The notes beneath the pieces are model-generated. The model searched no databases. It was not told the DNA's origin and saw only the letters and a program-made list of their open reading frames with translations. Shown here one piece after another: positions 440 to 63,300 of a stretch of DNA of 64,000 bases (its first letter is position 1; the number at the start of each line of letters is the position of its first letter). Source of the stretch: Pedococcus bigeumensis. GTDB lineage: Bacteria > Actinomycetota > Actinomycetes > Actinomycetales > Dermatophilaceae. The stretch covers positions 310,001 through 374,000 of the forward strand of contig NZ_RCZM01000004.1 of NCBI RefSeq assembly GCF_006438965.1. Direction: 5' to 3'. A program made the translations under genes and the position numbers.

Positions 440-484
440 AGGTATGCCGGTCGGTCCCCACCGCGGGGACCGACCGGCATACCT
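440..484. terminator. Perfect 20-bp stem-loop after serA
   Basis: Bases 440-459 and 465-484 are exact reverse complements with a 5-nt loop (460-464), followed by a short T-rich stretch. It lies between convergent serA and the acetyltransferase gene, so it can terminate both. The stem begins AGGTATGCCG and ends CGGCATACCT, the octamer repeated throughout the window. Confidence 0.85.
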
Positions 485-528
485 GTTTGTGGGGCTTGGC
501 TTGGCTGTGCAGGGCTTGGTCGGCGGGC

Positions 529-1068
529 TCAGCCCCGCGGTGGGCCGTCGTGGAGCACGAGGTTGAACAGGATGCTGTCCTGCCAGGCTCCGTCGAGGTA
601 GAGGAACTCCGGGATCCGCCCGTACTCCTGGAAACCGCACCGCCGCAGCACCTGCTGGGACGGGAGGTTTGCCACGTTCGTGCTGCCCCCGAGGCGGTGC
701 AGGTTGAGTTCGTGCGCGCGCTCGACGAGGAACTCCAGGGTGGCGACGCCCAGGCCGCGCCGCAGGTGGCCGTGGTCGATCCAGTAGCCGACGTCAGCGC
801 CCTGCATGGCGCCACGGACGATGTTCTGCAGGTTCGCCGCACCCACGACGTCGTGACCGTGCCACAGCAGCCAGCAGTCGTAGAGGCCCTGGGCGACCTG
901 GTCGAGGCGCCCGGAGATGGTCTCGCGTTGCCCGGCCTCGGTGAAGAACGCGTCGGGGCGGGTGGGTTCCCAGGGCTTGAGGTGTTCCCGGTTGCGGTCG
1001 TAGGCGGCCGCCAGCGCGGCGGCGTCGTCGAGCGCGAGGCGGCAGACGGTGTAGCCCTCTGGATGCAC
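529..1068 (-). CDS. GNAT family N-acetyltransferase (RimJ/RimL-like)
   Basis: The 179-residue protein starts at GTG 1068. It has the layout of RimJ/RimL-type GNATs, which transfer acetyl from acetyl-CoA to an amine, often a protein N-terminus. Seen: an N-terminal helix with NREHLKPWEP, a central strand segment DVGYWIDHGHLRRGLGVATL containing the R/Q-x-x-G-x-G/A-like CoA pyrophosphate loop, and a C-terminal LRRCGFQEYGRIPE block. Actual substrate cannot be read from sequence. It faces serA convergently and is divergent from the leuB leader region. Confidence 0.85.
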   Translation of the reverse strand: MHPEGYTVCRLALDDAAALAAAYDRNREHLKPWEPTRPDAFFTEAGQRETISGRLDQVAQGLYDCWLLWHGHDVVGAANLQNIVRGAMQGADVGYWIDHGHLRRGLGVATLEFLVERAHELNLHRLGGSTNVANLPSQQVLRRCGFQEYGRIPEFLYLDGAWQDSILFNLVLHDGPPRG

Positions 1069-1134
1069 TGGACCAACCTAGGACACGGGTGACGGAGGGG
1101 CCGCCGCGACACGTGACCGGGGCCACGTCCAGAG

Positions 1135-1144
1135 GTGTCTCACA
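1135..1144 (-). promoter_or_regulatory. TGTGAGACAC motif, copy 1
   Basis: Read on the minus strand this is TGTGAGACAC, identical to copies at 1543-1552 and 14348-14357. It lies between the acetyltransferase and the leuB leader. All three copies sit upstream of branched-chain amino acid genes, so it is a candidate half-site for the NdgR/LtbR-type regulator encoded at 24958-25701. That assignment is inference. Confidence 0.5.
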
Positions 1145-1223
1145 GCGTGGGAAACGGGTGTCGTTTAGTTGGACGTCCACGTAACCTCGAGGACATGACG
1201 CGGCAGGTCGTAATTCTTATTTG

Positions 1224-1465: not shown

Positions 1466-1483
1466 CGTCGCAGGCGAAATCCT

Positions 1484-2802: not shown

Positions 2803-3912
2803 ATGAGCCAGACCACCGCCCCGCTGACCTTCGAGGTCACCCGCCGCAACGACCCGCGGCCGGACGTGGAGCGCGAGGCGGTACTGGCGAACCCGGGGTT
2901 CGGCACCACCTTCACCGACCACATGGTCACCGCCATGTGGCGCAAGGGTGAGGGATGGAGCGAGGGCAAGGTCGCGGCATACGGACCGATCACCCTGATG
3001 CCCTCGGCAGCGGTGCTGCACTATGCCCAGGAGATCTTCGAGGGGATGAAGGCCTATCGCCACGCGGACGGGTCGATCTGGACCTTCCGCCCGGAGGCGA
3101 ACGCCCAGCGGATGCAGCGCAGTGCCCGCCGGATGACCCTGCCGGAGCTGCCCGAGGAGGATTTCCTCGGATCGCTGCGCGCCCTCGTCGAGGTCGACCA
3201 GGCGTGGGTGCCCTCCGGCGCGAGTGGCGAGTCGAGCCTCTACCTGCGGCCGTTCATGTATGCGTCCGAGGCCTTCCTGGGCGTGCGCCCTGCGTCCGAG
3301 GTGACCTACTCGGTCATCGCCTCGCCGGCCGGCGCCTACTTCAGCGGCGGCATCAAGCCAGTCACGCTGTGGCTGTCCATCGACTACGCGCGAGCCGGGG
3401 AGGGTGGCACCGGGGCAGCCAAGTGCGGCGGCAACTACGCCTCCAGCCTGGCCGGCCAGCTCGAGGGCATCGAGAACGGCTGCGACCAGGCGGTCTTCCT
3501 CGACGCCTCGACGCACACCTACGTCGAGGAGCTCGGCGGGATGAACCTGTTCTTCGTGACGAAGGACAACAAGCTGATCACGCCCGAGCTCACCGGCTCG
3601 ATCCTCGAGGGCGTCACCCGCTCGTCGGTCCTCGCGCTCGCCAAGGAGATGGGGCTCGAGCCCGAGGAGCGCCGCATCCCCATCCAGGAGTGGAAGGACG
3701 GCGCGGCCAGCGGCGAGATCGTCGAGATATTCGCCTGCGGCACCGCGGCCGTCATCACGCCGGTGGGCGAGCTGCGTTGGGACGGCGGGTCGTGCGACCA
3801 CCGCAACGGGGTCGATTACGGCGAGGTGACGCGCACCATCCGCGAGCGGCTGCTGGACATCCAGTACGGCCGAACCGAGGACACCCACGGATGGCTGACC
3901 CGGTTGGTCTGA
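2803..3912 (+). CDS. ilvE: Branched-chain amino acid aminotransferase
   Basis: IlvE (369 aa) is a fold-type IV PLP enzyme that transaminates the 2-oxo acids of Leu, Ile and Val with glutamate. The start is fixed by AGGAGG eight bases before ATG 2803. Seen: EIFEGMKAYRH near residue 80, the PLP lysine in GAAKCGGNYASS (Lys about 207), EELGGMNLFFV, and the C-terminal GTAAVITPVG cofactor phosphate loop. The last codons run into a 14-bp tandem repeat that continues past the stop codon. Confidence 0.96.
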   Translation: MSQTTAPLTFEVTRRNDPRPDVEREAVLANPGFGTTFTDHMVTAMWRKGEGWSEGKVAAYGPITLMPSAAVLHYAQEIFEGMKAYRHADGSIWTFRPEANAQRMQRSARRMTLPELPEEDFLGSLRALVEVDQAWVPSGASGESSLYLRPFMYASEAFLGVRPASEVTYSVIASPAGAYFSGGIKPVTLWLSIDYARAGEGGTGAAKCGGNYASSLAGQLEGIENGCDQAVFLDASTHTYVEELGGMNLFFVTKDNKLITPELTGSILEGVTRSSVLALAKEMGLEPEERRIPIQEWKDGAASGEIVEIFACGTAAVITPVGELRWDGGSCDHRNGVDYGEVTRTIRERLLDIQYGRTEDTHGWLTRLV

Positions 3913-5660: not shown

Positions 5661-6614
5661 GTGCTGGTTGACCAGTGGCTCGACCGGCTTGCGTGCCTCG
5701 CCGGTCAGGAACGCCGGGTCGATGACCTGCCCGGCGGGCTGACCAACCACAACTACCGGGTCCGGACGGCGACGCACGACGTCGTCGTCCGGATCTCGTC
5801 ACCCACGACCGACCTGCTCGCGGTCAACCGCGAGCACGAGTGGCTCAACAGTCGTGCCGCGGCAGCGGCCGGCGTGGGCGCCCCGGTGGTGGACTACCTT
5901 GCGGGACAGGGCGTCCTCGTTGTCGGCTTCCTCCCAGGTGTGACCTATGCGGCCGCCGACGTGGCCGCCAACCTGCCACGGATCGCTCGTGCCGTACGAC
6001 GCCTGCACGCCGGTCCGGCATTCGCGAACGACTTCGACATCTTCGAGGTCCAGCGCGGGTACCACGAGATCGTCATCCAGCGCGGGCTCCGAGTCCCCGA
6101 GGGGTATGCCGCGCTGGGCGAGTCTGCGGCGCGCGTCGAGGCCGCGCTGCGTCGCCTTCCCGAGCTGCGCGTCCCCTGCCACAACGACCTGTTGGCGGCC
6201 AACTTCCTCGACGACGGCGGCGACATCCGCATCGTCGACTACGAGTACTCCGGCACCAACGAGGCCAGCTTCGAGCTCGGCAACCTCATCAACGAGTCGC
6301 AGCTGGACCACGACCACCTGGTCGAGCTCGTGCGGGCATACTACGGACGGGTGGACCGCCGACTGCTGGCGCGGGCTGAGCTCTGGGGCCTGGCCGGCCG
6401 CTACGCCTGGACACTGTGGGGCGTCATCCAGCACAGCGTCTCCACTGTCGACCACGACTTCTGGGACTTCGCCCTCGAACGCCAGGCCCTCGCTGCCTCG
6501 CTCTTCACCAGTGCGCGGCTCGGCGACCTCCTCGAGGACGCGACGAGCCCATCGCCGCCGGAATCCTCCACGACAGGTCCCTGGCGAGCACTCCGGACCG
6601 GGGACGAGGCGTGA
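5661..6614 (+). CDS. Choline/ethanolamine kinase-like phosphotransferase
   Basis: The 317-residue protein belongs to the APH/choline kinase fold. Seen: the nucleotide-loop segment LPGGLTNHNYRV near residue 25, VVVRISSP with the ATP-contacting position, the catalytic Brenner block CHNDLLAANFLDD (about residues 172-184), and the metal-binding IVDYEYSGTNEASFELGN, the form found in choline/ethanolamine kinases (LicA-like) rather than antibiotic kinases. It starts at GTG 5661, seven bases after the permease stop, and overlaps the next gene by GTGA. In a catabolic operon its substrate is probably an amino alcohol or a derivative of it, but this is inference. Confidence 0.8.
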   Translation: MLVDQWLDRLACLAGQERRVDDLPGGLTNHNYRVRTATHDVVVRISSPTTDLLAVNREHEWLNSRAAAAAGVGAPVVDYLAGQGVLVVGFLPGVTYAAADVAANLPRIARAVRRLHAGPAFANDFDIFEVQRGYHEIVIQRGLRVPEGYAALGESAARVEAALRRLPELRVPCHNDLLAANFLDDGGDIRIVDYEYSGTNEASFELGNLINESQLDHDHLVELVRAYYGRVDRRLLARAELWGLAGRYAWTLWGVIQHSVSTVDHDFWDFALERQALAASLFTSARLGDLLEDATSPSPPESSTTGPWRALRTGDEA

Positions 6615-9079
6615 GCGAGCAGCTGCCGCAACGAGCTCGGGTCGTCATCATCGGTGGCGGGGTGATCGGCTGCAGCGTCGCCTACCACCTGGCCCACCTC
6701 GGCTGGACCGACGTGCTGTTGCTCGAGCAGGGCTCCCTGTCGTGCGGGACGACTTGGCACGCCGCCGGCCTGGTCGGCCAGCTGCGCGCCACCGAGGCCA
6801 GCACGCGGCTGGTGCAGTACTCCACCGAGCTCTACTCGCGTCTCGAGGCCGAGACCGGGCTCGGGACCGGCTACCGGGTCTGCGGTGGCCTGACCGTTGC
6901 CCGCACCGAGGAGCGGATGGTGGCGCTGCGACGCACGGCCGCCAGTGCCGCGGCATACGACCTGGACTGTGAGCTGCTCACCGCCCGCGAGGCGCACGAG
7001 CGCTACCCACTCATCCGCGCCGACGACCTGGTCGGCGCCATCTGGCTGCCCGGCGACGGGCGGGCCGACCCGACCGACCTCACCCAGGCCTTGGCCAAGG
7101 GTGCGCGCATGCGTGGCGTGCAGATCGCCGAACGGGTTCGCGTCACGGATGTGCTCACTGTGGAGGGGCGCGCGAGCGGGGTGCGCACCGACCAGGGCGA
7201 CACCGAGGCCGAGTTCGTCGTGAACTGTGCCGGCCAGTGGGCCAAGGCGGTGGGGGAGATGGTCGGCGTCACCGTGCCGCTGCACTCGGCCGAGCACTTC
7301 TACGTCGTCACCGAACAGATCGAGGGGGTCCACCGAGACCTGCCGATCCTGCGCGACCCCGACGGCTACACCTACGTCAAGGAGGAGGTCGGCGGACTGC
7401 TCGTGGGCGGCTTCGAGCCGGAGGCCAAGCCGTGGGTGGCGCCGGACCAGATCCCGTACCCGTTCGAGTTCGCGCTGCTGGATGAGGACTGGGAGCACTT
7501 CGAGATCCTGATGGACAGCGCCGTCCACCGGCTCCCGGTGCTGGCCGAGACCGGGATCCGCAAGTTCTACAACGGACCCGAGAGCTTTACCCCCGACAAC
7601 CAGTTCATCATCGGGGAGGCCCCGGAGCTGGCCGGCTTCTTCGTCGCAGCCGGGTTCAACTCGGTGGGCATCGCGTCCGCTGGTGGGGCAGGGCGGGCGC
7701 TCGCCGAGTGGATCGTCGAGGGGCAGCCGACGACCGACCTGATCAGCGCCGACATCCGCAGGTTCTCCCCGCTGGCGGGCAACAACGACTGGCTGCGCCG
7801 GCGCGTGGGGGAGGTGCTCGGGCTGCACTACGCCGTGCCGTGGCCCAACCGCGAGCTGGAGACCGGTCGGCCCCTGCGGCGGTCACCGGTCCACGACCTG
7901 GTCCTCGACCAAGGCGCGTGCCTCGGCAGTCGCAACAACTGGGAACGTCCCAATGTCTTTGCACCCCAGGGTGTTCCGCTGGTCATCGAGTACTCATGGG
8001 AGCGTCCGACCTGGGTCGACTGGTCGGTCGCGGAGCAGCGTGCGACGCGGGAAGCAGTCGCGGTCTTCGACCAGACCTCGTTCTCGAAGTACCTCGTCGT
8101 GGGGCCCGGTGCCGAGCGCGCGCTGCAGTGGGTCTGCTCCGCAGATGTCGGTGTGCCGGAGGGCCGTGCGGTCTACACCGGGATGCTCAACGCGCTCGGC
8201 AGCTACGAGTCCGACGTGACGGTGACGAGGACTGCGCCCGACGAGTTCTTCGTGGTCAGCAGCGCGGCGACGACGGTGCGCGACATCGACTGGATGCGTC
8301 GCCACTTCCCGAGCGATGCGGCGGCGCACGTCGTCGACCTCACGAGCTCGTATGCCGTGTTCGGCGTGATGGGTCCGAGGTCACGCGAGCTGCTGGAGCG
8401 GCTGTCGCCTGATGCGTTCGACGATGCGTCGTTTCCCTTTGCCACCAGTCGCGAGGTGCGCATCGGGCAGGCCACCGTGCGGGCGACGCGGATCACCTAC
8501 GTGGGCGAGCTGGGCTGGGAGCTGTACGTCCCGACCGACCTCGCCGCAGGTGTCTATCAGGACCTGTTCAGGGCCGGCAGCGACCTCGGCGTCGTCCCAG
8601 CGGGCTACTACACGATCGAGGCGATGCGCCTGGAGAAGGGGTATCGCGCCTTTGCCCGAGAGCTGACCACCGAGACCGGACCGGTGGTGGCGGGACTGAC
8701 CTTCGCGTGCAAGCTCGGGACTGACATCGACTTCCTGGGCCGTGCCGCTGTGGAGGATTCGCGGTTGACCCCGCCCGCGCGGCGGATCGTTTCCTTCGTG
8801 GTCGGTGACCCCGCGGCATACCCGTGGGGTGGGGAGCTGGTGCTGCGCGACGGCGAGCCAGTCGGCCAGGTGACCAGCGCGGCGTGGGGCGCCACGGTCG
8901 GCGCGGGGGTCGGGCTGGCCCTGGTGGGGGACCGGGCATCGGGCGCGACAACAGTGGACTGGGTGCGGGGCGGCAGCTACGAGATCGACCTGGCGGGGAA
9001 GCGGTACCCGGTGACGGTGGGTCTCCGTCCGCCGTTCGACCCCGAAGGCCACAAGCTGGCCCGTGAGAACCGCGACTGA
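6611..9079 (+). CDS. GcvT-fused FAD oxidase, dimethylglycine/sarcosine dehydrogenase-like
   Basis: The 822-residue protein has an N-terminal FAD/DAO oxidase domain (VVIIGGGVIGCS at residues 11-22; His50 in GTTWHAAGL matches the histidine that binds FAD covalently in dimethylglycine dehydrogenase), then the FAO linker, then a C-terminal GcvT-type tetrahydrofolate domain (YVGELGWELYVP, IEAMRLEKGYRAF). Family members oxidatively demethylate N-methylated glycines or amines and pass the one-carbon unit to folate. The GTG 6611 start overlaps the kinase stop. Next to a gamma-glutamyl amine pathway it could remove N-methyl groups before or after the ligase step. The true substrate is not readable. 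Confidence 0.85.
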   Translation: MSEQLPQRARVVIIGGGVIGCSVAYHLAHLGWTDVLLLEQGSLSCGTTWHAAGLVGQLRATEASTRLVQYSTELYSRLEAETGLGTGYRVCGGLTVARTEERMVALRRTAASAAAYDLDCELLTAREAHERYPLIRADDLVGAIWLPGDGRADPTDLTQALAKGARMRGVQIAERVRVTDVLTVEGRASGVRTDQGDTEAEFVVNCAGQWAKAVGEMVGVTVPLHSAEHFYVVTEQIEGVHRDLPILRDPDGYTYVKEEVGGLLVGGFEPEAKPWVAPDQIPYPFEFALLDEDWEHFEILMDSAVHRLPVLAETGIRKFYNGPESFTPDNQFIIGEAPELAGFFVAAGFNSVGIASAGGAGRALAEWIVEGQPTTDLISADIRRFSPLAGNNDWLRRRVGEVLGLHYAVPWPNRELETGRPLRRSPVHDLVLDQGACLGSRNNWERPNVFAPQGVPLVIEYSWERPTWVDWSVAEQRATREAVAVFDQTSFSKYLVVGPGAERALQWVCSADVGVPEGRAVYTGMLNALGSYESDVTVTRTAPDEFFVVSSAATTVRDIDWMRRHFPSDAAAHVVDLTSSYAVFGVMGPRSRELLERLSPDAFDDASFPFATSREVRIGQATVRATRITYVGELGWELYVPTDLAAGVYQDLFRAGSDLGVVPAGYYTIEAMRLEKGYRAFARELTTETGPVVAGLTFACKLGTDIDFLGRAAVEDSRLTPPARRIVSFVVGDPAAYPWGGELVLRDGEPVGQVTSAAWGATVGAGVGLALVGDRASGATTVDWVRGGSYEIDLAGKRYPVTVGLRPPFDPEGHKLARENRD

Positions 9080-9879: not shown

Positions 9880-11247
9880 ATGACCACACCACCCCGGCTC
9901 ACCGTCGAGGAGCTGAAGGCGGACATCGTCGCAGGCACCATCGACACCGTGATCGTCGCGTTCACGGACATGCAGGGGCGCCTGCAGGGCAAACGCCTGC
10001 ACGGCCACTACTTCCTGGACCACGCCCTCGCCCACGGCACGGAGGGGTGCAACTACCTGCTCGCCGTCGACGTCGACATGAACACCGTCGGCGGCTACGC
10101 CATCAGCTCGTGGGAGCGCGGGTACGGCGACATGATGTTCGACCTCGACCTCTCGACGCTGCGCCGTACACCAGGGCAGCCGGGCTCGGCGATGGTCCAG
10201 TGCGACCTGTCCTGGCTCGACGGGAGCGGGCCGGTCCGCCCGTCGCCGCGGTCGGTGCTCAAGGCGCAGGTCGATGCGGCCGCTGAGCTCGGCTTCGTGG
10301 CCCTGGCCGGTACCGAGCTGGAGTTCATCGTCTTCGAGGACACCTACGAGCAGGCATGGGACGGGCGCTACCAGGGGCTCACGCCGGCCAACCGTTACAA
10401 CGTCGACTACTCGATTCTCGGGGGCTCGAGGGTCGAGCCCCTCCTGCGCGACATCCGCAACGAGATGTATGCCGCGGGAGCGACCGTGGAGAGCGCGAAA
10501 GGGGAGTGCAACCACGGTCAGCACGAGATCGGGTTCCTCTACGACGACGTCCTGCGTACCTGTGACGTGCACGCGGTCTACAAGAACGCGGCCAAGGAGA
10601 TCGCCGCCGCCCATGGGAAGTCGCTGACCTTCATGGCCAAGTACGACGCGCTCGAGGGCAACTCCTGCCACGTGCACCTCTCGCTGCGCGGCTCCGACGG
10701 TGCCATCTCGTTCGCCGACTCGGCCCGCGAGGGTGGACGGAGCGAGCTGTTCGACCACTTCCTCGCCGGCATGCAGGCGACACTGCGCGAGTTCACCTGC
10801 TTCTACGCACCGAACATCAACTCCTACAAGCGGTTCCAGTCGGGCAGCTTCGCGCCCACGGCAGTCGCCTGGGGCACCGACAACCGGACCTGCGCACTGC
10901 GGGTGGTAGGGCATGGTGCCGGCCTGCGCGTCGAGAACCGGGTGCCCGGTGGGGACATGAACCCCTACCTCGGCGTCGCCGCCATGCTGGCCGGTGGGCT
11001 GCACGGCATCCGTGAGCGACTCGAGCTCGAACCAGCCTTCGAGGGCAACGCCTACGCCTCGGACCGCGAACGCGTCCCGGGCACGCTCGCGCAGGCCCGC
11101 GACCTGCTCGCCGGTTCGCAGGTCGCGCGGGCAGCCTTCGGTGAGGACGTGGTGGCGCACTACGTCAACCACGCCGACGTGGAGCTGGCCGCTTTCAATG
11201 CCGCCGTCACCGACTGGGAACGGATCAGGGGGTTCGAGCGGCTGTGA
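9880..11247 (+). CDS. Glutamine synthetase-like gamma-glutamyl amine ligase
   Basis: The 455-residue enzyme has the GS fold: N-terminal beta-grasp, GTELEFIV (metal glutamates), GECNHGQHEIGF, NSCHVHLS, the ATP/phosphate segment KRFQSGSFAPTAVAWG with NRTCALRV, and ENRVPGGDMNPYL. It lacks the housekeeping-type adenylylation loop seen in GlnA1 as far as I can tell, and clusters with catabolic genes, as do PuuA and GlnA4, which join glutamate to putrescine or ethanolamine using ATP. The expected reaction is glutamate plus amine plus ATP giving gamma-glutamylamide. It overlaps the aldehyde dehydrogenase start by four bases (GTGA). Confidence 0.88.
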   Translation: MTTPPRLTVEELKADIVAGTIDTVIVAFTDMQGRLQGKRLHGHYFLDHALAHGTEGCNYLLAVDVDMNTVGGYAISSWERGYGDMMFDLDLSTLRRTPGQPGSAMVQCDLSWLDGSGPVRPSPRSVLKAQVDAAAELGFVALAGTELEFIVFEDTYEQAWDGRYQGLTPANRYNVDYSILGGSRVEPLLRDIRNEMYAAGATVESAKGECNHGQHEIGFLYDDVLRTCDVHAVYKNAAKEIAAAHGKSLTFMAKYDALEGNSCHVHLSLRGSDGAISFADSAREGGRSELFDHFLAGMQATLREFTCFYAPNINSYKRFQSGSFAPTAVAWGTDNRTCALRVVGHGAGLRVENRVPGGDMNPYLGVAAMLAGGLHGIRERLELEPAFEGNAYASDRERVPGTLAQARDLLAGSQVARAAFGEDVVAHYVNHADVELAAFNAAVTDWERIRGFERL

Positions 11248-12638
11248 GCGCGACCGTGCACGAGGTGCTCAACCCGGCGACCGAGGCCGTCGTCACCGAG
11301 GTGCCGCTGGCCTCGCTCGAGGACGCCGACGCCGCCATCGCCGCGGCCGAGGCTGCTGGACCCGCGTGGCGCGCGGTGGCACCGGCTGACCGTGGTCGCC
11401 TGCTGCACCGGTTCGCCGAGGTCGTCGACGACCACCTCGAGGAGCTGGCCCGGCTGGAGGTGGCGAACGCCGGCCACACCATTGGCAACGCGCGCTGGGA
11501 GGCCGGCAACGTCCGAGACGTCCTGACGTACTACTCGGCGGCACCGGAACGGCTGTTCGGCAAGCAGATCCCGGTGGCCGGTGGCCTCAACGTCACCTTC
11601 AAGGAGCCGTTGGGCGTCGTCGGGATCATCGTCCCCTGGAACTTCCCGATGCCCATCGCCGGCTGGGGATTCGCGCCGGCCCTCGCGGCGGGGAACACCG
11701 TGGTCCTCAAGCCGGCCGAGCTCACCCCGCTGACCGCGCTGCGGCTCGGTGAGCTCGCCCTCGAGGCGGGACTTCCTGAGGGCGTGTTCACCGTCGTCGC
11801 AGGCAAGGGCTCGGTCGTAGGGGAGCGATTCGTCACCCACCCCGCGGTGCGCAAGGTCTGCTTCACCGGCTCGACCGCGGTGGGTCAGCGGATCATGCGC
11901 GGCGCCGCCGACCAGGTCAAGCGGATCACCCTCGAGCTGGGCGGCAAGAGCGCCAACATCGTCTTCGCCGACAGTGACCTCGAGAAGGCAGCAGCCACCG
12001 CCCCCTACGGCGTCTTCGACAACGCCGGGCAGGACTGCTGCGCGAGGAGTCGGATCCTCGTGCAGCGCAGCGTGTTCGACCGCTTCATGGGGCTCTTCGA
12101 GCCGGCGGTGGCTGGGGTCGTCGTCGCCGAGCCCGGCGACGACGCCACGGAGATGGGTCCCCTCATCAGCGCTGGTCAGCGAGAGACGGTTCGCTCGTAT
12201 GTCGAGGAGTCACCTGAGCCGGTCGACATCGCCTTCCGTGGTGGCGCGCCCGAGGGCGCCGGCTACTGGTACCCACCGACCGTCGTGCTGCCCCGGGCCA
12301 CGACCGACCGGGTCTGGCAGGAGGAGGTCTTCGGGCCAGTGGTCGCCGTGATGCCGTTCGACGACGAGGCCGACGCGATCGCCAAGGCCAACGACACGGC
12401 ATACGGGCTGTCGGGCTCGATCTGGACGCGCGACGTGGGTCGCGCCCTGCGCGTCGCTCGCGGTGTGGAGGCAGGCAACCTGTCGGTCAACTCGCACAGC
12501 AGCGTTCGCTACTCCACGCCCTTCGGTGGCTTCAAGCAGTCGGGTCTCGGGCGGGAGCTCGGACCGGACGCGCTGGACTCGTTCACCGAGGTCAAGAACG
12601 TCTTCATCTCACACGACAGCAGCTCCACGGACAGTTGA
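11244..12638 (+). CDS. NAD(P)-dependent aldehyde dehydrogenase
   Basis: The 464-residue protein carries the full aldehyde dehydrogenase set: IIVPWNFPMPIAGWGFAPAL, VVLKPAELTP, FTGSTAVGQRI, the general-base glutamate in ITLELGGKSANIVF, the nucleophile region NAGQDCCARSR, and EEVFGPVVAVMPF plus GGFKQSGLGRE at the C-terminus. In this cluster the likely substrate is a gamma-glutamylated aminoaldehyde, oxidised to a gamma-glutamyl amino acid as PuuC does in E. coli. It is translationally coupled to the ligase gene. An ordinary betaine- or aminoaldehyde substrate is the alternative. Confidence 0.92.
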   Translation: MSATVHEVLNPATEAVVTEVPLASLEDADAAIAAAEAAGPAWRAVAPADRGRLLHRFAEVVDDHLEELARLEVANAGHTIGNARWEAGNVRDVLTYYSAAPERLFGKQIPVAGGLNVTFKEPLGVVGIIVPWNFPMPIAGWGFAPALAAGNTVVLKPAELTPLTALRLGELALEAGLPEGVFTVVAGKGSVVGERFVTHPAVRKVCFTGSTAVGQRIMRGAADQVKRITLELGGKSANIVFADSDLEKAAATAPYGVFDNAGQDCCARSRILVQRSVFDRFMGLFEPAVAGVVVAEPGDDATEMGPLISAGQRETVRSYVEESPEPVDIAFRGGAPEGAGYWYPPTVVLPRATTDRVWQEEVFGPVVAVMPFDDEADAIAKANDTAYGLSGSIWTRDVGRALRVARGVEAGNLSVNSHSSVRYSTPFGGFKQSGLGRELGPDALDSFTEVKNVFISHDSSSTDS

Positions 12639-16134: not shown

Positions 16135-17565
<1,431 letters not shown>

Positions 17566-22644: not shown

Positions 22645-22680
22645 GAGGTATGCCGCGGGGCCGGCCACGCGGCATACCTC
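22645..22680. terminator. Stem-loop capped by the GGTATGCCG word, before gltX
   Basis: GAGGTATGCCGCG (22645-22657) is exactly complementary to CGCGGCATACCTC (22668-22680); the 10-nt interior is itself GGCC-rich. There is no T-tract. It probably separates the FAH-family gene from gltX transcription. Confidence 0.65.
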
Positions 22681-39058: not shown

Positions 39059-39335
39059 CGGGGTACTCCTTGGCGGTAGTGGACGTGGTCGACCCACGAC
39101 TGACTGTCGCTGACCCTACCCAGCGGTGGGCCGCATACACCGCCTCGCGTGAATGCGGCCCCCGAATCGTGACCTGTGCATGTGGTGTCTGAGTCTGGGG
39201 CGGTGCAGGCGGTGCGGGCGGTGTTCGGGCGGTGTTCGGGCGCTGGCGCGACGGTATGCCGTCGTGAGCGTTGAATGGGTGGGTGGCGGAGACGAACCCG
39301 CCGATCCAGCGGACGACGCGAACTGAGGGAGTGGC

Positions 39336-40270: not shown

Positions 40271-40371
40271 GGCCGTGGGGTGAACACACGGCATACGCTC
40301 CGCCCGTCCTTGCCGTGGCTGGAAGTGGGGGAGGCGCGGATACTGGCGTGCATGACCAGGCACGTGAGCCA

Positions 40372-46570: not shown

Positions 46571-46593
46571 GGTGCGTATGCCGGTCGGCAGGC

Positions 46594-51954: not shown

Positions 51955-52530
51955 GTGACTCGGATCATCAGTGGGCGCGCCGGCGGCATGCGGCTGGCCA
52001 CCCCGGCCGGCTCCGGCACCCGACCGACGAGCGACCGGGTCCGGGAGGCCCTCTTCTCGCGCCTCGAGCACCTCGAGGTCCTCCTCGGTGCCCGAGTGCT
52101 GGACCTGTATGCCGGCTCGGGTGCCCTCGGTCTCGAAGCCGCCAGCCGGGGCGCGGTGAGCGTGCTGCTCGTGGAGTCGGACAAGGGCGCCGCGAAGGTG
52201 GCGCAGCAGAACGCGGGGGCACTCGGCATACCCGGGATCACGGTGCGGCACACCACCGTTCAGAAGGCGCTGGCCGCAGCGCCGGCGCAGCCGCAGACCT
52301 TGGTGTTCCTCGACCCACCCTACGAGCTGAGCGAGGAGGCGCTGGCCGCAGACCTCGCGGCCCTCGCAGACCAGCAGTGGCTCGACCGCGAGGCGCTCGT
52401 GGTCGTCGAGCGGTCCTCGCGATCACCCGAACCGGCCTGGCCCGAGGCGCTCGAGCTGGAGGGGGAGCGCCGCTACGGCGAGACGAAGATCTGGTTCGCC
52501 GGTCCTCGGGTCCCCGACGTCGTCGCGTGA
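51955..52530 (+). CDS. rsmD: 16S rRNA (guanine(966)-N2)-methyltransferase
   Basis: RsmD (191 aa) methylates G966 of 16S rRNA with S-adenosylmethionine. Seen: TRIISGRAGGMRLATP start, TRPTSDRVREALFSRLEH, the SAM motif VLDLYAGSGALGLEAASRG, and catalytic LDPPYEL (about residues 118-124). GTG 51955 is chosen over an upstream in-frame GTG 51937 because it lies six bases after TACCTT and matches the family start. coaD normally follows; here HesB-like and hemerythrin-like genes intervene. Confidence 0.93.
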   Translation: MTRIISGRAGGMRLATPAGSGTRPTSDRVREALFSRLEHLEVLLGARVLDLYAGSGALGLEAASRGAVSVLLVESDKGAAKVAQQNAGALGIPGITVRHTTVQKALAAAPAQPQTLVFLDPPYELSEEALAADLAALADQQWLDREALVVVERSSRSPEPAWPEALELEGERRYGETKIWFAGPRVPDVVA

Positions 52531-54227: not shown

Positions 54228-56363
54228 CTGACCTCGAAATCCCCACGGCCGGAACGCTTTCGGCCCGACATCGAGGGGCTGCGAGCCATCGCCGTCCTGC
54301 TCGTGATGACCTACCACGCGGGCGTTCCGCTGCAGAACGGCTTCCTTGGGGTCGACGTCTTCTTCGTCATCTCCGGCTTCCTCATCACCAGCATCCTCGT
54401 CCGCGAGCTCCTCACCACCGGCACGATCAGCTGGGCCCGCTTCGTCGGACGCCGGATCCGCCGCCTGCTCCCTGCCGCGATCCTCGTCCTCGTCGTCACC
54501 GCCCTCGTGGCCTGGTTCGCCGTCCCCGGCCTGCGCCGCCGGGAGATCGGCACCGACATCGCAGGCGCAGCCCTCTACGTCGTCAACTGGGTCTTCTCGC
54601 ACCGCGCCGTCGACTACCTCGCCTCGGACAGCATCCCCTCGCCGGTGCAGCACTTCTGGTCGCTGGCGGTCGAGGAGCAGTTCTACGTCATCTGGCCGCT
54701 GGCCCTGATCGCGCTCGCGCTCGTCCTGCGCCGGCTGGGTCGGCGTCCCAGCGTGCCCGCGGTGGGCGCGCTGCTGGCCGCCATCGCCGTTCCGTCCTTC
54801 GGGTATGCCGTGTGGCTGGGAGCCGTCGACCCGGCGCGGGCCTACTTCGTCACCACCACCCGCGCGTGGGAGCTGGGCGTCGGCGCGGCGCTCGCCGTCT
54901 GGTGCGCGGGCAGGGAGGCGCCGACGCGGCATACCCACGCAGGCTCCGGCTCCGATGGTGGCGCACGCGAAGGCGTCGCCAGAGCAGCCGGTAGTCCCGC
55001 AGTCGCCGCCGTGATCGGCTGGGTAGGGCTGGTCTCGGTCATCGGCGCTGCCTGCTGGCTGCCGTCAGGCGCGGTCACGCCGGGGGCGTGGACGCTGCTC
55101 CCGACCGTCGGCGCCGCCGCCGTCCTCTATGCCGGCTGGACCGGCACTCCCCATGGCCCGGTCCGGGTCCTCGGCACCGCGCCGATGGTCTGGATCGGCG
55201 GGCTGTCCTACTCGCTCTACCTCTGGCACTGGCCGGCCCTCATCCTCAGTGAGTGGGCGTTCGACGGGCTCAGCCAAGCCCAGCAGGCGCTCGTCGTCGC
55301 GCTCGCGGTGGTGCCCGCCTGGCTGAGCCACCGGTTCCTCGAGAGCCCGATCCACCACAGCAAGGCCCTGGCCGCCCGCACCCGGCCCGTCCTGGCGATG
55401 GGGCTCGCGCTCTCGGCCGTCGGCGCCCTGGCTGCGCTGCCGCTGACCCACGCGGCGTCGCCGTTCCGAACCACGCCCCTGGCCGGCGCTCGCCCCGCCC
55501 TCGAAACCCTCGGCGCGGCGACCCTCACCTCACCGCCCAGCACCGACCCCGCGGCCTATGCCATCGACGACTGGGAGTGGCTGACGCCGGATCCGCAGCT
55601 CTCCGGCAAGGACCGGCCCAAGGCCGATGTCGACCGGTGCCAGGTCGACCGGGTGGTCGAGGAGCCGGTCGCCTGCGAGTTCGGTGTGGCCGGGGGAGCG
55701 ACCACCGTCGCCCTCGTCGGTGACTCCAAGGCGATGCAGTGGCTGCCCGCGCTCGAACGGCTGGCGCCCGCACGTGGCTGGCGCATCGTGACCTACGGCA
55801 AGTCCGCCTGCACGTTCGCCGCGGGCCACGCCCAGAACGCGGGCAAGGCCTACCCGGCGTGCGACGAGTGGAACCGCCGCGTCGTGGACCGGCTGCGCGC
55901 CGACCCCCCCGACCTCCTGCTGACCTCCGGGTATGCCGGGTCCGCCTGGGACGGCGCCCGCGCCACCCGTGGCGCGTTGGTGGCCGGTCTGTCCGACCGG
56001 TGGACTCAGCTGCGGGACGCCGGTGTGCCGGTCGTGGTCCTCGGGGACAGCCCGCTGTCGCCCAACGACCTTGACGTCTGCACGGCCCGACACCCGCACC
56101 AGCTGAGCCGCTGCGCCTTCGACCGGGACCCAGCGGTCGCGGGGAGCGGGCTGCCCGCCCAACGCGAGGCGACCACAGCGTCGGGCACGCCGCTGGTCGA
56201 CCTCACGGCCTGGATCTGCCCGGTCCCGAGGTGCCCCGTCGCCATCGGGAACGTCGCCATCCACCGCCCTGGCGACCACCTCACCGCGACCTATGTCCGC
56301 ACCCTGGCGCCGGTCCTGGGAGCGGCACTGGACCGCGGGCTACCCTCGGCTGCTGCCCGCTGA
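54228..56363 (+). CDS. Acyltransferase-3/SGNH fusion (OafA-like O-acyltransferase)
   Basis: About 710 residues: an N-terminal acyltransferase-3 membrane domain of roughly ten helices (RPDIEGLRAIAVLLVMTYHAG; GFLGVDVFFVISGFLIT; FWSLAVEEQFYVIWPL) and a C-terminal SGNH domain (VALVGDSKAMQWL; RPGDHLTATYVR). Such proteins O-acylate cell-surface glycans. No ATG, GTG or TTG lies near the expected start: CTG 54228, with GGGAG seven bases upstream and one base after the coaD stop, fits best; ATG 54159 would overlap coaD by 68 bases. Block I reads GDSK where GDSH is more usual. Confidence 0.88.
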   Translation: MTSKSPRPERFRPDIEGLRAIAVLLVMTYHAGVPLQNGFLGVDVFFVISGFLITSILVRELLTTGTISWARFVGRRIRRLLPAAILVLVVTALVAWFAVPGLRRREIGTDIAGAALYVVNWVFSHRAVDYLASDSIPSPVQHFWSLAVEEQFYVIWPLALIALALVLRRLGRRPSVPAVGALLAAIAVPSFGYAVWLGAVDPARAYFVTTTRAWELGVGAALAVWCAGREAPTRHTHAGSGSDGGAREGVARAAGSPAVAAVIGWVGLVSVIGAACWLPSGAVTPGAWTLLPTVGAAAVLYAGWTGTPHGPVRVLGTAPMVWIGGLSYSLYLWHWPALILSEWAFDGLSQAQQALVVALAVVPAWLSHRFLESPIHHSKALAARTRPVLAMGLALSAVGALAALPLTHAASPFRTTPLAGARPALETLGAATLTSPPSTDPAAYAIDDWEWLTPDPQLSGKDRPKADVDRCQVDRVVEEPVACEFGVAGGATTVALVGDSKAMQWLPALERLAPARGWRIVTYGKSACTFAAGHAQNAGKAYPACDEWNRRVVDRLRADPPDLLLTSGYAGSAWDGARATRGALVAGLSDRWTQLRDAGVPVVVLGDSPLSPNDLDVCTARHPHQLSRCAFDRDPAVAGSGLPAQREATTASGTPLVDLTAWICPVPRCPVAIGNVAIHRPGDHLTATYVRTLAPVLGAALDRGLPSAAAR

Positions 56364-56499
56364 GGACGGTCGCACGCGCCCGGGCGACGACGCGGCATAC
56401 CCGCGCATTTGGGGGAGTGACCTGTGCTCCGGTAATCTCGTGCGTCGGTCTTGTCCTCGCCCGAGGTGCAGTCCGAGTCACTCGACGTCTGCTGGAGCC

Positions 56500-57378: not shown

Positions 57379-58197
57379 ATGCAGCGGCCCGTCGACGGGT
57401 TTGTCCAGCACCTCACCGAGGTGGTGGGCAAACCCGTCGACGAGTCGCTGCTTTCGCGTGCCCTCACGCACCGCTCGTACGCGTACGAGAACGGTGGCCT
57501 GCCCAACAACGAGCGCCTTGAGTTCCTCGGCGACTCGGTGCTCGGGCTCGTGGTCACCGACACGTTGTATGCCGCGCACCCGGACCTTCCCGAGGGCCAG
57601 CTCGCGAAGCTGCGTGCTGCCGTGGTGAACATGCGTGCGCTGGCCGACGTGGCCCGCACGCTGGGGCTGGGTGACCACGTGATGCTGGGCCGTGGCGAGG
57701 AGAGCACCGGTGGTCGCGACAAGGCCTCGATCCTCGCCGACACGATGGAGGCCGTCATCGGGACGGTCTACCTGTCCTGCGGGATGGGCGCCGCCGCGAA
57801 CCTCGTGCACCATCTGCTCGACCCGCTGATGGCGGCGAGTGCGACGTTGGGCGCCGGCCTGGACTGGAAGACCAGCCTCCAGGAACTGTCCGCGTCCACC
57901 GTCCAGGGCGTTCCCGAGTACCGCGTCGAGGAAGAAGGCCCCGACCACGAGAAGACCTTCCACGCGCAGGCTGTCGTGGGCAACGAGGTCCTCGGCACCG
58001 GCACCGGCCGGTCCAAGAAGGAAGCCGAGCAGCGCGCTGCCGAGCTCGCCTGGCGGGCGCTCGACTCACGGGCTGCCGAGCTGGCCAACCCCGGTTCGAC
58101 CGGCGCCGGCGCAGACTCCGTCGCCGTTGGGTCCGCTGGGCCCGCTGCCGCTGACGCGCTGGCCGACGAGGACGCCGTGGCGGGCTCGCCCTCCTAG
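57379..58197 (+). CDS. rnc: Ribonuclease III
   Basis: RNase III (272 aa from ATG 57379) cleaves double-stranded RNA in rRNA and mRNA processing. Seen: [10 protein letters not shown], the signature [18 protein letters not shown] (about residues 44-61), [19 protein letters not shown] (second acidic cluster), and a double-stranded RNA-binding domain ([13 protein letters not shown] ... [18 protein letters not shown]). The tail of about 45 residues is Ala/Gly-rich. GGGGGA before ATG 57379 favours it over GTG 57331. Confidence 0.94.
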
Positions 58198-58271
58198 GCG
58201 AGCGCCCGGCATACCCACGTCTTTGACGCCCGAGCCGCAGGGGTGTCGGCCACGCATGCTTGAGTTGGCCC

Positions 58272-59530: not shown

Positions 59531-59691
59531 CATTTCGGTCGCTTTCGATCGCAGGTCAGTCCACGTGACCGGAGGTGAACTCATCGGTCTGCCATTGACC
59601 GGCCGGGGTCCGGGTGTCAGTCTGAGAGATGCCCGGTTCGGGCACACCCGCAGCACGCGATCCCCCCGACGTCTGCGGAGAAGGAGTCGAC

Positions 59692-59883
59692 ATGGCCAAG
59701 GCCCTGGTGGGCTATCGCGTGGCGTCTGACCCGCGACTGATGCTCGAGACCGTCGAACTGCGCCGCCGCGTGCGTGACCTCGAGTACCTCGTCGAACGGT
59801 TGCAGCGTGACAACGACCAGCTACGCGAAGATCTGAGACAGCCCGCCACCGTGGCAGCGGGCATGCCTACGATTGCCGGGTGA
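59692..59883 (+). CDS. Small coiled-coil protein (63 aa, hypothetical)
   Basis: ATG 59692 follows GAGAAGGAG. The product starts MAKALVGYRVASDPRLMLE, then forms a heptad-rich helix (VELRRRVRDLEYLVERLQ) and a short tail. Its stop overlaps the GTG start of the chorismate mutase gene by four bases, so the two are translationally coupled. No family function known to me. Confidence 0.75.
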   Translation: MAKALVGYRVASDPRLMLETVELRRRVRDLEYLVERLQRDNDQLREDLRQPATVAAGMPTIAG

Positions 59884-60236
59884 GTTCGCCCGCACAGACA
59901 CCCAGTTCCGCACCAGGTTCAGGGCCACGCATTCCATCGGGTTCAGGACCCCGTTCGACACCCGACGATCTCGTGCGCCTGCGCGCCAGCATCGACAACG
60001 TCGACGCGGCCCTGATCCACCTGCTCGCCGAGCGGTTCAAGTGCACCCAGCAGGTGGGCGAGCTCAAGGCCCGCGAGGGTATGCCGCCCGCTGACCCCGC
60101 GCGCGAAGAGTCCCAGATCGCGCGGTTGCGCGACCTCGCCGACCAGGCCGGGCTGGACCCGACGTTCGCCGAGAAGTTCCTCAACTTCGTGATCGCCGAG
60201 GTCATCCACCACCACGAAGCCATCGCCGGCTCCTGA
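59880..60236 (+). CDS. Chorismate mutase (AroQ class)
   Basis: The 118-residue protein has a Pro/Ser-rich N-terminus (residues 1-28) and an AroQ helical domain: LRASIDNVDAALIHLLAERFKCTQQVGELKA (catalytic Arg and Lys), AREESQIARLRDLADQAGL and FLNFVIAEVIHHH. It converts chorismate to prephenate for Phe/Tyr synthesis, unless it acts only as a structural partner of another shikimate enzyme. GTG 59880 overlaps the upstream stop. Confidence 0.9.
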   Translation: MSSPAQTPSSAPGSGPRIPSGSGPRSTPDDLVRLRASIDNVDAALIHLLAERFKCTQQVGELKAREGMPPADPAREESQIARLRDLADQAGLDPTFAEKFLNFVIAEVIHHHEAIAGS

Positions 60237-60381
60237 CCGCGCGGCATACCTCTGGCGTCACTCCTGTCTCACGGTGCACAGGCAACGCAGGACGGTGGAA
60301 GGTGCGGGGAGCGCGCCGGTCCCGCGGGTACAGTGGCCGCGATCAGACCCCGCCAGCAACTCACCAGGAGCCGAGCCGCTC

Positions 60382-63300
60382 GTGTACGTCAAGAGCCTGA
60401 CCCTGAAGGGCTTCAAGTCCTTCGCCTCGGCGACCACGATGCGCCTCGAACCCGGCATCACCTGCATCGTCGGGCCCAACGGCTCCGGCAAGTCCAACGT
60501 CGTCGACGCGCTCGCGTGGGTGATGGGGGAGCAGGGCGCCAAGAGCCTGCGCGGCGGCAAGATGGAGGACGTCATCTTCGCCGGCACCGCCGGTCGGGCA
60601 CCGCTGGGCCGCGCCGAGGTGGCACTCACGATCGACAACACCGACGGCGCGCTGCCGATCGACTACACCGAGGTCACCATCGCCCGGACGATGTTCCGTA
60701 ACGGTGGCTCGGAGTACGCCATCAACGGCACCTCCTGCCGACTGCTCGACGTCCAGGAGCTGCTGTCCGACTCCGGCATCGGCCGCGAGATGCACGTCAT
60801 CGTCGGCCAGGGCCAGCTCGACGCCGTGCTGCGCGCCACTCCCGAGGAGCGCCGCGGCTTCATCGAGGAGGCCGCCGGCGTCCTCAAGCACCGCAAGCGC
60901 AAGGAGAAGGCGCTCCGCAAGCTCGAGTCGATGGACGCCAACCTCACCCGCGTCAACGACCTCACCGGCGAGATCCGCCGCCAGCTCGGTCCGTTGGGCC
61001 GCCAGGCCGAGGCCGCCCGCAAGGCCGCCGTCGTCCAGGCCGACGCCCGCGACGCCCGGCTGCGGCTGCTTGCCGACGACCTCGTCCAGCTCACCTCGAC
61101 CCTCGAGCAGGAGGTCGCCGACGAGTCCGCGCTGATCGCCAAGCGCACCGAGGTCGAGGACGGCCTGACCACCCTGCGCAGCCGCCTCGCCACCCTGGAA
61201 GAGCAGGCGCAGGACGCCGCTCCCGAGCTGGCCAAGGCTCAGGAGCGCTGGTTCGCCCTCCAGCAGCTGCGCGACAAGCTCACCTCCACCGAGTCGCTGG
61301 CCGCCGAACGCGTCCGCCTGCTCTCCCAGGACAGCCAGGACGAGCAGACCTCGGGCCGAGACCCCGAGGAGCTCCGCGCCCAGGCCGTCGAGGCGCGCAA
61401 GCAGGAGGAAGCCCTGCTCGCCGAGGTGGGCGAGGCCAAGACCGAGCTCGAAGCCGCCACCGCAGCGCGTGCGGCCGCAGAGCAGGCGTATGCCGCGGAG
61501 CAGCAGCGCCTCCAGCGGCTCGTCCGCGCAGCCGCTGACCGTCGCGAGGGGCTGGCCAAGCTGGCCGGCCAGGTCGGCGCCCGCAGGAGCCGTCTCGAGG
61601 CCGGTGAGGCCGAGATCGGTCGACTCCGTGGGGTCATCGAGCAGTCCTTGCAGCGCGCCGCCGCCGCGGAGCAGGAGTTCCAGACGCTCGAAGCCTCCGT
61701 CGCCGTCGACGAGGAGGGTGAGGAAGGGCTGGACTCGGCCTACGAGAAGGCCGCCGCCATCCTCGAGCAGGTCGAGGCCGAGGTCGAGAAGCACCGCGAG
61801 GCCGAGCGCCTCGCCGAGCGCGACCGCACCAGCGGCACCGCCCGGCTCGAAGCTCTCGAGCTCAGCCTGTCCCGCAAGGACGGCGCCGCCACGCTCCTCG
61901 CTGCCGCAGACTCCAAGCACGGCATCGTCGGGTCGGTCGCGTCGCTGCTCCAGGTCAAGGGCGGGCACGAGGCCGCCATCGCCGCCGCTCTCGGCTGGGC
62001 GGGTGACGCCCTGGCCGTCGAGTCGGTCGAGCACGCCGCCCGCGCCCTCACCACGCTGCGCGCCGACGACGCCGGTCGGGCTGCGTTCCTCGTCGGGCAG
62101 ACCGCGTCGTCGAGCGACCCGTCGACCTGGCCACGGCTCGAGGGCTCGGCTGTCTGGGCCCGCGAAGTCGTCGAGGCGCCTGCCACGGTCCGTCCTGCCG
62201 TCGAGCAGCTGCTCGAACGGGTCGCCCTCGTCTCCGACCCCGCTCTGGCTGCTGCGCTCGTAGCGAGTGGTGAGGGCATCACCGCGGTGACCACCGACGG
62301 CGACGTGTTCGCCCCCGGCTTCGTCCGCGGCGGCAGCAGCCACGCGCCGAGCCTCATCGAGATCCAGTCGGCCGTTGACGAGACGCGCGACCGCGTCGCC
62401 GACGCGACCCGCCGCGGCGAGCAGGCACGGTTCGCCCTGACCGCCGCGCAGGAGCGGCACCGGGTCGCCAGCGACGACGTCGAGCACGCCCTCGAGCGGC
62501 TGCACGACTCCGACGCCAAGATGGCCGCCGTTGCCGAGCGACTCGGTCACCTCGGCGCCACCGTCCGGTCCGCCAAGGCCGAGGCGGAGCGCACCGAACG
62601 CTCGATCGCCGATGCGACGGCCGCCCTCGAGACCGACCGCGTCGAGCTCGCCGGAATGACCGAACGCCTCGACGAGGCCAGCGCCGAACCGACCGAGTCG
62701 CAGGACCCCGGCACCGACGAGCGCGACCGCCTCGAGCTCGAGGCCAGCCGTGGTCGCACGGCCGAGACCGAGCTCCGGCTCACGCTGCGCACCAAGGAGG
62801 AACGGGCTCGCGCCCTCAAGGGCCGCGCGGACTCCCTCGAAGGCGCTGCCCGCAACGAGCTGGCCGCCCGCCAGCGACTGGCCGCCCGCCAGGAACGCCG
62901 CAAGCGCGAGGCCACGGTGGCCGAGGCGGTGCGACGCGGCGCGGCATACGCGAGCACGCTCATCGCCACCACCCTCGACACCGCAGCCCGCAAGCGCACC
63001 AGTGCGGAGCAGGAGCGCACCGAGCGCGACCAGGCCCTCACCGTGGTGCGCCGCGACGTCGCCGCCCTCCAGGACGACCTGCGCGAGCTCACCGACACGG
63101 TGCACCGCGACGAGGTGGCCCGCACCCAGCAGGTGCTGCGGATCGAGGCCCTGCAGGCCAAGGCCGTCGAGGAGCTCGGCATCTCGCCGGAGGCGCTGAT
63201 GGAGGACTTCGGTCCGCACCAGCTCGTGCCGTTCGTCGTCGGGCCGGACGACAACCCCGACGAGATCCCCGAGCCCGGACCCTACGTCCGCGAGACGCAG

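What the first reader, a model, noticed from the sequence alone, without database searches (positions are those of the whole stretch)
442..62949. Highly iterated octamer GTATGCCG/CGGCATAC across the window
By eye I count about 45 copies (for example 442, 475, 2975, 6104, 6951, 8350, 10467). A GC-matched random model (G/C 0.35, A/T 0.15 each) gives about 2 in 64 kb on both strands. Copies occur in all reading frames: TAT-GCC (Tyr-Ala), GCA-TAC (Ala-Tyr), ATG-CCG (Met-Pro), and even GGC-ATA with the very rare ATA codon in rsmD and thiL, so the DNA word rather than the protein seems selected. It also caps three intergenic hairpins. This resembles cyanobacterial HIP1, uptake sequences or chromosome-architecture motifs, but I know of no description for this word.
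Basis: partly seen in the sequence, partly recalled or inferred. Interest (0 to 1): 0.78.

Follow-up and report, generated by a model that had tools for sequence, protein, structure and literature searches.

The report
Uptake-sequence-like DNA word in actinobacteria
This actinobacterium carries thousands of copies of one short DNA word that looks like the "self" tags some bacteria use to choose which DNA to take up, a kind of system that a recent paper says is known only from two Gram-negative families.

Summary
Confirmed: exactly 45 copies of GTATGCCG in the window (shuffle mean 0.81) and 2,551 in the 4.22-Mb genome, against 74 of the reversed word. It is the core of a longer polar motif, GGTATGCCGcGTGgnC, equally common on both strands, about four times denser between genes, and often in inverted pairs at gene 3' ends. 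In the genomes searched it is abundant only in one actinobacterial family (Intrasporangiaceae/Dermatophilaceae), in 107 of 186 members, and nearly absent from single species of rich genera. These are marks of DNA uptake sequences (DUS/USS), and the genome has comEA, comEC and Flp/Tad loci. Against: no type IV N-methyl pilin detected; the competence genes tested are equally present in motif-poor relatives; nothing was tested at the bench. New: copies on the same strand avoid each other within about 1 kb while opposite strands do not, so neighbours alternate (344 opposite, 127 same; P about 2e-24). A phage-biased sample of Haemophilus-type USS lacks this. The motif seems read strand by strand or directionally. 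Best reading: strand-aware uptake tag (0.55); main rival: Chi-like repair signal (0.2).

The parts
442..482 (.). intergenic inverted pair of the core word (442-449 +, 475-482 -), hairpin between convergent genes
22648..22677 (.). intergenic inverted pair of the extended motif (22648-22655 +, 22670-22677 -), 7 bp after a stop codon
24902..24936 (.). intergenic inverted pair of the extended motif (24902-24909 +, 24929-24936 -)
2975..2982 (-). core copy
6104..6111 (+). core copy
6951..6958 (-). core copy
8350..8357 (+). core copy
8814..8821 (-). core copy
10467..10474 (+). core copy
12397..12404 (-). core copy
14151..14158 (-). core copy
14923..14930 (+). core copy
16287..16294 (-). core copy
18742..18749 (-). 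core copy
19247..19254 (+). core copy
19914..19921 (+). core copy
20532..20539 (+). core copy
27480..27487 (+). core copy
27869..27876 (-). core copy
31180..31187 (-). core copy
34278..34285 (-). core copy
34918..34925 (+). core copy
36519..36526 (+). core copy
37592..37599 (-). core copy
39254..39261 (+). core copy, outside called genes
40289..40296 (-). core copy, outside called genes
43254..43261 (+). core copy, outside called genes
46136..46143 (-). core copy in thiL (makes an ATA codon); also present in 6 of the 13 relatives in which the site aligned
46576..46583 (+). core copy, outside called genes
49078..49085 (-). core copy in recG
52107..52114 (+). core copy in rsmD; also present in 8 of the 18 relatives in which the site aligned; the other 10 have CTACGCCG or another variant
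52224..52231 (-). core copy in rsmD (makes an ATA codon)
54803..54810 (+). core copy
54927..54934 (-). core copy
55931..55938 (+). core copy
56393..56400 (-). core copy, outside called genes
57567..57574 (+). core copy
58207..58214 (-). core copy, outside called genes
60079..60086 (+). core copy
60242..60249 (-). core copy, outside called genes, upstream of smc
61488..61495 (+). core copy in smc
62942..62949 (-). core copy in smc

Best explanation
The word is the 8-bp core of a polar motif of about 16 bp, GGTATGCCGcGTGgnC, that works as a self-recognition tag for natural transformation in Intrasporangiaceae. Proposed mechanism: the competence machinery of these cells (Flp/Tad-type filament, ComEA, ComEC) takes in or protects DNA carrying the motif better than other DNA. 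Such DNA recombines into the chromosome, so biased import drives copies up to one per 1-2 kb. One tag per fragment and per strand suffices, so a second copy on the same strand within about 1 kb gains nothing and is not maintained. The motif would thus be sensed strand by strand, for example on the single strand that passes ComEC, or it would set which strand enters. Paired copies at gene ends may double as terminator stems. Shown: abundance, motif, strand balance, intergenic enrichment, inverted pairs, family limits in the genomes searched, species that lack it, site turnover, strand-specific spacing, presence of the competence genes. Inferred: that the machinery prefers the motif, that drive explains its spread, which protein reads it, that bare species lost it, and that the cells are competent at all.
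For: 2,551 copies, 1,264/1,287 by strand. Extended motif in unpaired intergenic copies. 1.9 copies per kb between genes, 0.48 in genes. 12 of 14 tight inverted pairs in 374 kb lie at a gene 3' end (read by hand). Abundant in one family only: 107 of 186 family genomes exceed 105 copies per Mb (table retyped); none of the 290 genomes of the class outside it exceeds 52 per Mb (read by hand). Near-absence in single species of rich genera: G151 50 copies, G127 19, G065 37. Variants of core and flank in other genera, G145 and G014. Sites kept in 38 of 60 aligned cases in the six richest same-genus relatives, where 18-36% of all 8-mers are kept, and in 0 of 23 in four poor genera. comEA, comEC and Flp/Tad loci present. 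Same-strand exclusion in G000, G002, G005 and G145.
Against: No N-methyl (type IV) pilin detected in this genome or in 34 of 36 family genomes, so no ComP-like receptor was found. ComEC is in all 36 family genomes, TadE in 35 of 36, T2SSE in all 28, motif-poor ones included, so no gene tested tracks the motif. The three bare species still have ComEC matches (the G151 match is cut by a contig end). In the four less rich same-genus relatives sites are kept in only 7 of 41, no better than background. Haemophilus uptake is reported to be independent of orientation (PMC1939737, passages), and a USS sample shows no same-strand exclusion. One-off words are 1.44 times expected, within 2 sd of permuted words, and do not carry the flank, so there is little sign of decaying copies. 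No paper on competence in this family was listed.
Confidence: 0.55

Rival explanations
1. A Chi-like polar signal for double-strand-break repair: the motif is read by a nuclease-helicase (AdnAB in these bacteria) moving along DNA from one side only, so each orientation must be spaced evenly and the two orientations are independent.
For: It predicts same-strand exclusion without an opposite-strand effect, as seen. PDDEXK_1 proteins are found in all 29 family genomes searched; this genome has two AdnA/AdnB-sized ones side by side (the name is my inference from size and place).
Against: RecC, the partner of classical Chi, is absent here and in 20 of 23 motif-rich family genomes. PDDEXK_1 proteins are equally present in motif-poor relatives. 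No strand skew in the stretches sampled, whereas known Chi sites are skewed (recalled). The motif has a long degenerate flank. Near-absence in single species of rich genera is hard to square with a repair signal.
Confidence: 0.2
2. An orientation-dependent chromosome-organising or segregation motif, or a methylation target of the HIP1 kind.
For: Even spacing and broad coverage in the stretches sampled.
Against: Not palindromic; no skew of strands in the stretches sampled (origin and terminus were not located); nearly absent from sister genera and single species; a polar motif of about 16 bp does not suit a methylase. No base-modification data were available.
Confidence: 0.1
3. A packaging, conjugation or other DNA-transfer tag of a chromosomally encoded agent such as a gene transfer agent or a TraB-like translocase (8-bp signals of the latter recalled).
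For: Biased transfer of any sort would give drive, family limits and losses.
Against: Directional transfer that starts at the motif predicts exclusion in one of the two opposite-strand arrangements as well; neither is clearly excluded. No such agent was looked for.
Confidence: 0.07
4. A transcription-terminator or repeat-element artefact.
For: Inverted pairs at gene ends.
Against: 161 of 239 copies in 374 kb lie inside called genes, on both strands relative to the gene; flanks beyond the motif are unrelated.
Confidence: 0.01

Closest known systems
DNA uptake sequence (DUS) of Neisseriaceae, ATGCCGTCTGAA (word as given in PMC5031613, passages)
   Same: Hundreds to thousands of copies, inverted pairs as terminators, dialects by clade (PMC12616744 and PMC5031613, passages).
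   Different: Actinobacterial host in which no type IV N-methyl pilin was detected; another word (shares ATGCCG, probably by chance); strand-specific spacing, which I could not check in Neisseria.
Uptake signal sequence (USS) of Pasteurellaceae, AAGTGCGGT with AT-rich flanks
   Same: Fixed core plus weaker flank; no orientation bias along the chromosome; relatively even distribution; terminator pairs (PMC1939737 and PMC7811141, passages).
   Different: Uptake there is reported as independent of orientation (PMC1939737, passages); the phage-biased USS sample lacks same-strand exclusion.
Chi sites (RecBCD/AddAB; recalled)
   Same: Octamer core; orientation-dependent use.
   Different: No RecC here, no strand skew, long flank, patchy within genera.
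HIP1 of cyanobacteria (recalled)
   Same: Very frequent octamer.
   Different: HIP1 is a palindrome; this word is not.
Flp/Tad-dependent competence of Micrococcus luteus (PMC6370729, passages)
   Same: comEA, comEC and Flp/Tad genes; no N-methyl competence pilins detected here.
   Different: No uptake sequence is mentioned for M. luteus in the passages I saw.

Membership tests
DNA uptake sequences (DUS/USS) | Strong genomic excess of one short word | tested here: met
   2,551 copies against 74 of the reversed word
DNA uptake sequences (DUS/USS) | No orientation bias along the chromosome | tested here: met
   forward and reverse differ by at most 3 in each of 21 stretches; chi2 5.1 on 21 df; sample, not whole genome
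DNA uptake sequences (DUS/USS) | Inverted pairs acting as terminators | tested here: inconclusive
   14 tight convergent pairs in 374 kb, 12 at a gene 3' end; the flanks printed show no clear T-run, and termination was not tested
DNA uptake sequences (DUS/USS) | Dialects that follow phylogeny | tested here: inconclusive
   different flank or core in G145 and G014; no tree built
DNA uptake sequences (DUS/USS) | Competence machinery in the genome | tested here: met
   comEA, comEC, Flp/Tad loci
DNA uptake sequences (DUS/USS) | Receptor is a type IV minor pilin (shown for Neisseria; predicted for Pasteurellaceae in PMC12616744) | tested here: not met
   PF07963 not found in G000 and in 34 of 36 family genomes; Flp/TadE pilins are another family
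DNA uptake sequences (DUS/USS) | Motif raises DNA uptake or transformation | not testable with these tools
   needs experiment
DNA uptake sequences (DUS/USS) | Action independent of motif orientation | tested here: inconclusive
   strand-specific exclusion argues against it, by inference
Chi (RecBCD) | RecBCD present | tested here: not met
   PF04257 (RecC) not found in G000
Chi (RecBCD) | Leading-strand skew (recalled) | tested here: not met
   no strand skew in the stretches sampled; origin and terminus not located
HIP1 | Palindromic octamer (recalled) | tested here: not met
   the reverse complement of GTATGCCG is CGGCATAC
KOPS-type FtsK signals | Skew towards the terminus (recalled) | tested here: inconclusive
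   no strand skew in the stretches sampled; origin and terminus not located

The most novel reading that the evidence does not exclude
A Gram-positive uptake or recombination tag that is read per strand: copies exclude each other only on the same strand, over about 1 kb, so the chromosome carries two independent, interleaved, evenly spaced series of polar tags. This would be the first DNA uptake sequence outside Neisseriaceae and Pasteurellaceae, and one that marks single strands or direction.
Probability: 0.4. Interest if true: 0.92.

Novelty: new variant of a known kind. Interest (0 to 1): 0.82.

Why it matters
[quoted passage not shown] A third, independent case in a Gram-positive phylum, where the type IV minor pilins used as receptors elsewhere were not detected, would show that the strategy arose again with different machinery. 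The strand-by-strand spacing offers a way to ask which step reads the tag. If true, it would also suggest a tag for transforming members of this family.

Tried and rejected
Dialects in motif-poor relatives: 20 to 40 kb from eight poor genera (G011, G016, G018, G019, G020, G024, G033, G034) gave no equally strong related word. The top words in G033 and G020 look like longer repeats; CCGGCTCC in G016 (38 against 8.5) was not followed up.

Competence genes as the discriminating factor: ComEC, TadE, T2SSE and PDDEXK_1 are present with and without the motif. comEA and comEC were found by tblastn in all 21 loci compared. tblastn splits comEC into two pieces in bare G127 but also in motif-rich G005 and G064, so this says nothing. 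The G151 match is cut by a contig end.

RecBCD/Chi: RecC in 10 of 36 family genomes, 3 of them motif-rich (G002, G021, G035).

Direct-repeat deletion as the cause of same-strand exclusion: considered; G014, with as dense a word, has no such exclusion, so thought unlikely.

One-off words as decayed copies: their flank score is no higher than that of permuted words (2.23 against 2.40; perfect copies 3.40), so most are not decayed copies.

A count of the core word over them gave 193 in 1.15 Mb, but that count wrongly included the window (45 copies, 64 kb), which leaves 148, of which at least 120 are the selected matches. Looks like chance.

Gene-content comparison between bare and rich species and a tree of the family were not done.

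Papers: search listings only. Passages seen of PMC1939737, PMC7811141, PMC5217627, PMC6370729, PMC5031613, PMC12616744 and PMC2843746; none read whole. Karlin et al. 1996 on USS spacing is not held; its claim is taken second-hand from PMC1939737. Of the 643 papers holding the bare octamer only the 20 listed titles and abstract openings were seen. That no uptake sequence is in print for Actinobacteria rests and the PMC12616744 sentence.

Full report
OBSERVATION. The window holds exactly 45 copies of GTATGCCG on both strands; dinucleotide shuffles give 0.81 on average and 3 at most. GC is 69.6%. The whole genome (G000, 4.22 Mb, 13 contigs) holds 1,264 forward and 1,287 reverse copies against 35 and 39 of the reversed word. 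In a 464-kb sample (20 stretches of contig 1 plus the window) 298 copies are seen where a 3rd-order Markov model expects 12.9. A 5th-order model, built from sub-words that the motif itself inflates, expects 192. After masking the motif, the 3rd-order expectation is 2.4.

WHERE IT IS. By similarity of recG the nearest named genomes are Phycicoccus sp. Soil802 and Pedococcus cremeus (73-74%), family Intrasporangiaceae (Dermatophilaceae). Their 22-kb loci carry 13 and 12 copies; the Janibacter limosus and Luteipulveratus loci carry none. G008, a same-genus genome, probably is Phycicoccus sp. Soil802, since its contig has the same length (inference).

THE MOTIF. Around unpaired intergenic copies (50 of 239 copies in 374 kb) the consensus is GGTATGCCGcGTGgnCg, with G at +9 in 84%, G at +11 in 76% and C at +14 in 68%. 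Flanks of coding copies are partly set by codons (inference). The same flank is seen in two same-genus genomes, G002 (27 copies) and G005 (19 copies). Copies have a density of 0.48 per kb in genes and 1.9 per kb between genes, 1.27 without the paired copies (my own simple gene calls). In genes two frames prevail: 85 sense Tyr-Ala and 45 antisense ending in Ala-Tyr, of 161.

INVERTED PAIRS. In the same 374 kb, 14 convergent pairs lie closer than 60 bp and none divergent; in 774 kb it is 28 convergent and 3 divergent. Several form stems from the whole extended motif. Of the 14, 13 are intergenic and 12 lie at a gene 3' end. Three are in the window. No clear T-run follows, so termination is inferred.

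STRAND-SPECIFIC SPACING (new). Successive copies alternate in strand. In the window 35 of 44 neighbours are opposite. In 774 kb, 344 are opposite and 127 same (binomial P 1.8e-24; 1,000 strand permutations gave 228 +/- 11 same, minimum 189). Without the tight pairs it is 298 to 111. The pair correlation shows why. Same-strand pairs occur at 0.06 of expectation at 60-500 bp, 0.34 at 500-1,000, 0.71 at 1,000-1,500 and about 1 beyond. Opposite-strand pairs are at 1.31, 0.63 and 1.05 in the first three bins. So each strand carries its own fairly evenly spaced series (same-strand gap CV 0.67; 0.87 when strands are permuted). Counts per 20 kb are under-dispersed (index 0.38, P 0.007), and strands are more balanced than chance (P 1.6e-4, partly because of the paired copies). 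The exclusion is repeated in G002 (0.45, 0.72, 0.72), in G005 (0.15, 0.61, 0.61) and, with few pairs, in a second genus, G145 (0.16, 0.28, 0.85; neighbours 29 same and 45 opposite, P 0.04). It is absent for this word in G014 (1.2, 0.68, 1.03; neighbours 92 same, 79 opposite), whose flank differs. With the looser word GTATGNCG, which G014 seems to favour, neighbours are 116 same and 169 opposite (P 0.001) but close same-strand pairs are hardly reduced (0.88). As a control I took AAGTGCGGT in phage-bearing contigs found with an extended USS pattern: 100 of 120 loci had at least 0.3 copies per kb (20 dropped). Close pairs (60-500 bp) were 48 same and 29 opposite, neighbours at 60 bp or more 231 same and 166 opposite. 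That sample is prophage-biased and no substitute for a whole chromosome.

DISTRIBUTION. In 186 genomes of the family (53 genera) counts run from 7 to 4,724. 107 genomes in 30 genera exceed 105 copies per Mb and 79 do not. Not all of the latter are at background: for example g53, g17 and g49 members with 189 to 361 copies still exceed their reversed control four-fold or more, while g2 and g62 members have 9 to 38. All 11 genomes of the own genus, own included, are rich (625-3,986). In three rich genera one species is nearly bare: G151 (50 copies; the 30 others of its genus 394-1,901), G127 (19; the two others 1,062 and 3,681) and G065 (37, only 89% complete; the four others 1,251-1,660). Of 296 genomes spread over the class, 290 lie outside the family, and none exceeds 52 copies per Mb by my reading. 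Of 22 order members outside the family, the highest has 62 per Mb with as many reversed words.

CONSERVATION. In recG blocks (12.5-20 kb) of 20 family genomes, the window's sites are kept in 38 of 60 aligned cases in the six richest same-genus relatives (G001-G005, G008), where 18-36% of all 8-mers are kept. G005 keeps 12 of 14 at 78% nucleotide identity. In the four less rich same-genus genomes (G006, G007, G009, G010) it is 7 of 41, no better than background (19-25%). In five rich other genera (G027, G032, G031, G021, G014) it is 7 of 30, against 12-17% background. In four poor ones (G011, G026, G020, G034) it is 0 of 23. G022 is rich genome-wide but its block holds no copy (0 of 2). Motif-rich relatives also carry copies where the window has none, so sites turn over.

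MACHINERY. The genome has comEC (Competence plus metallo-beta-lactamase domains) and comEA (SLBB plus helix-hairpin-helix) side by side, and Flp/Tad loci with T2SSE ATPases and TadE, the kind of set on which Micrococcus luteus competence depends (PMC6370729, passages). N-methyl pilins are found in 2 of 36 family genomes only, not here. None of ComEC, TadE, T2SSE or PDDEXK_1 tracks the motif. RecC occurs in 10 of 36, 7 of them motif-poor, and not here.

READING. Abundance, balanced strands, core plus flank, intergenic enrichment, gene-end pairs, even spacing, family limits, variants between genera and turnover together are the marks of DUS and USS, and I know no other kind of element with all of them. 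But same-strand exclusion is not expected if, as reported for Haemophilus, the tag works in any orientation (PMC1939737, passages). It says that a second copy brings nothing if the same strand already has one within about 1 kb, while the other strand counts separately. Two kinds of machine would do that: one that reads single strands (transformation brings in one strand through ComEC) and one that moves along DNA and reads the tag from one side (Chi-like). Transfer that starts at the tag and runs one way would also exclude one of the two opposite arrangements, which is not clearly seen. Patchiness inside genera and the long flank favour transformation; the missing correlation with any gene tested and the absence of type IV pilins weigh against a simple copy of the known systems. 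I file it as uptake-sequence-like, not as a proven member: uptake was not testable and the receptor criterion is not met.

Noticed in passing
G000 C8:1-374000 (L116-L131 and window): Palindrome CTGTGCACAG (often TCTGTGCACA) counted 20 times, that is about 10 places since palindromes count on both strands, against 0.16 expected; perhaps a regulator box.
   Followed up: no
window: Palindrome TCGATATATCGA, 4 counts (2 places), expectation near zero in a 70% GC sequence.
   Followed up: no
window: GCCAAGAAGGC is over-represented (10 against 0.09); read as Ala-Lys-Lys-Ala it is probably ordinary coding.
   Followed up: no
   Followed up: partly
G014 (L146-L155): Looser core GTATGNCG with another flank and no clear same-strand exclusion.
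   Followed up: partly
36 family genomes: RecC is found in 7 of 13 motif-poor and 3 of 23 motif-rich genomes (own genome included); may be phylogeny only.
   Followed up: no
L038:6533-17649, L042:4998-13847, G000 C8:1-10196: Motif-free gaps of 9-11 kb at near-normal GC; possible insertions.
   Followed up: no
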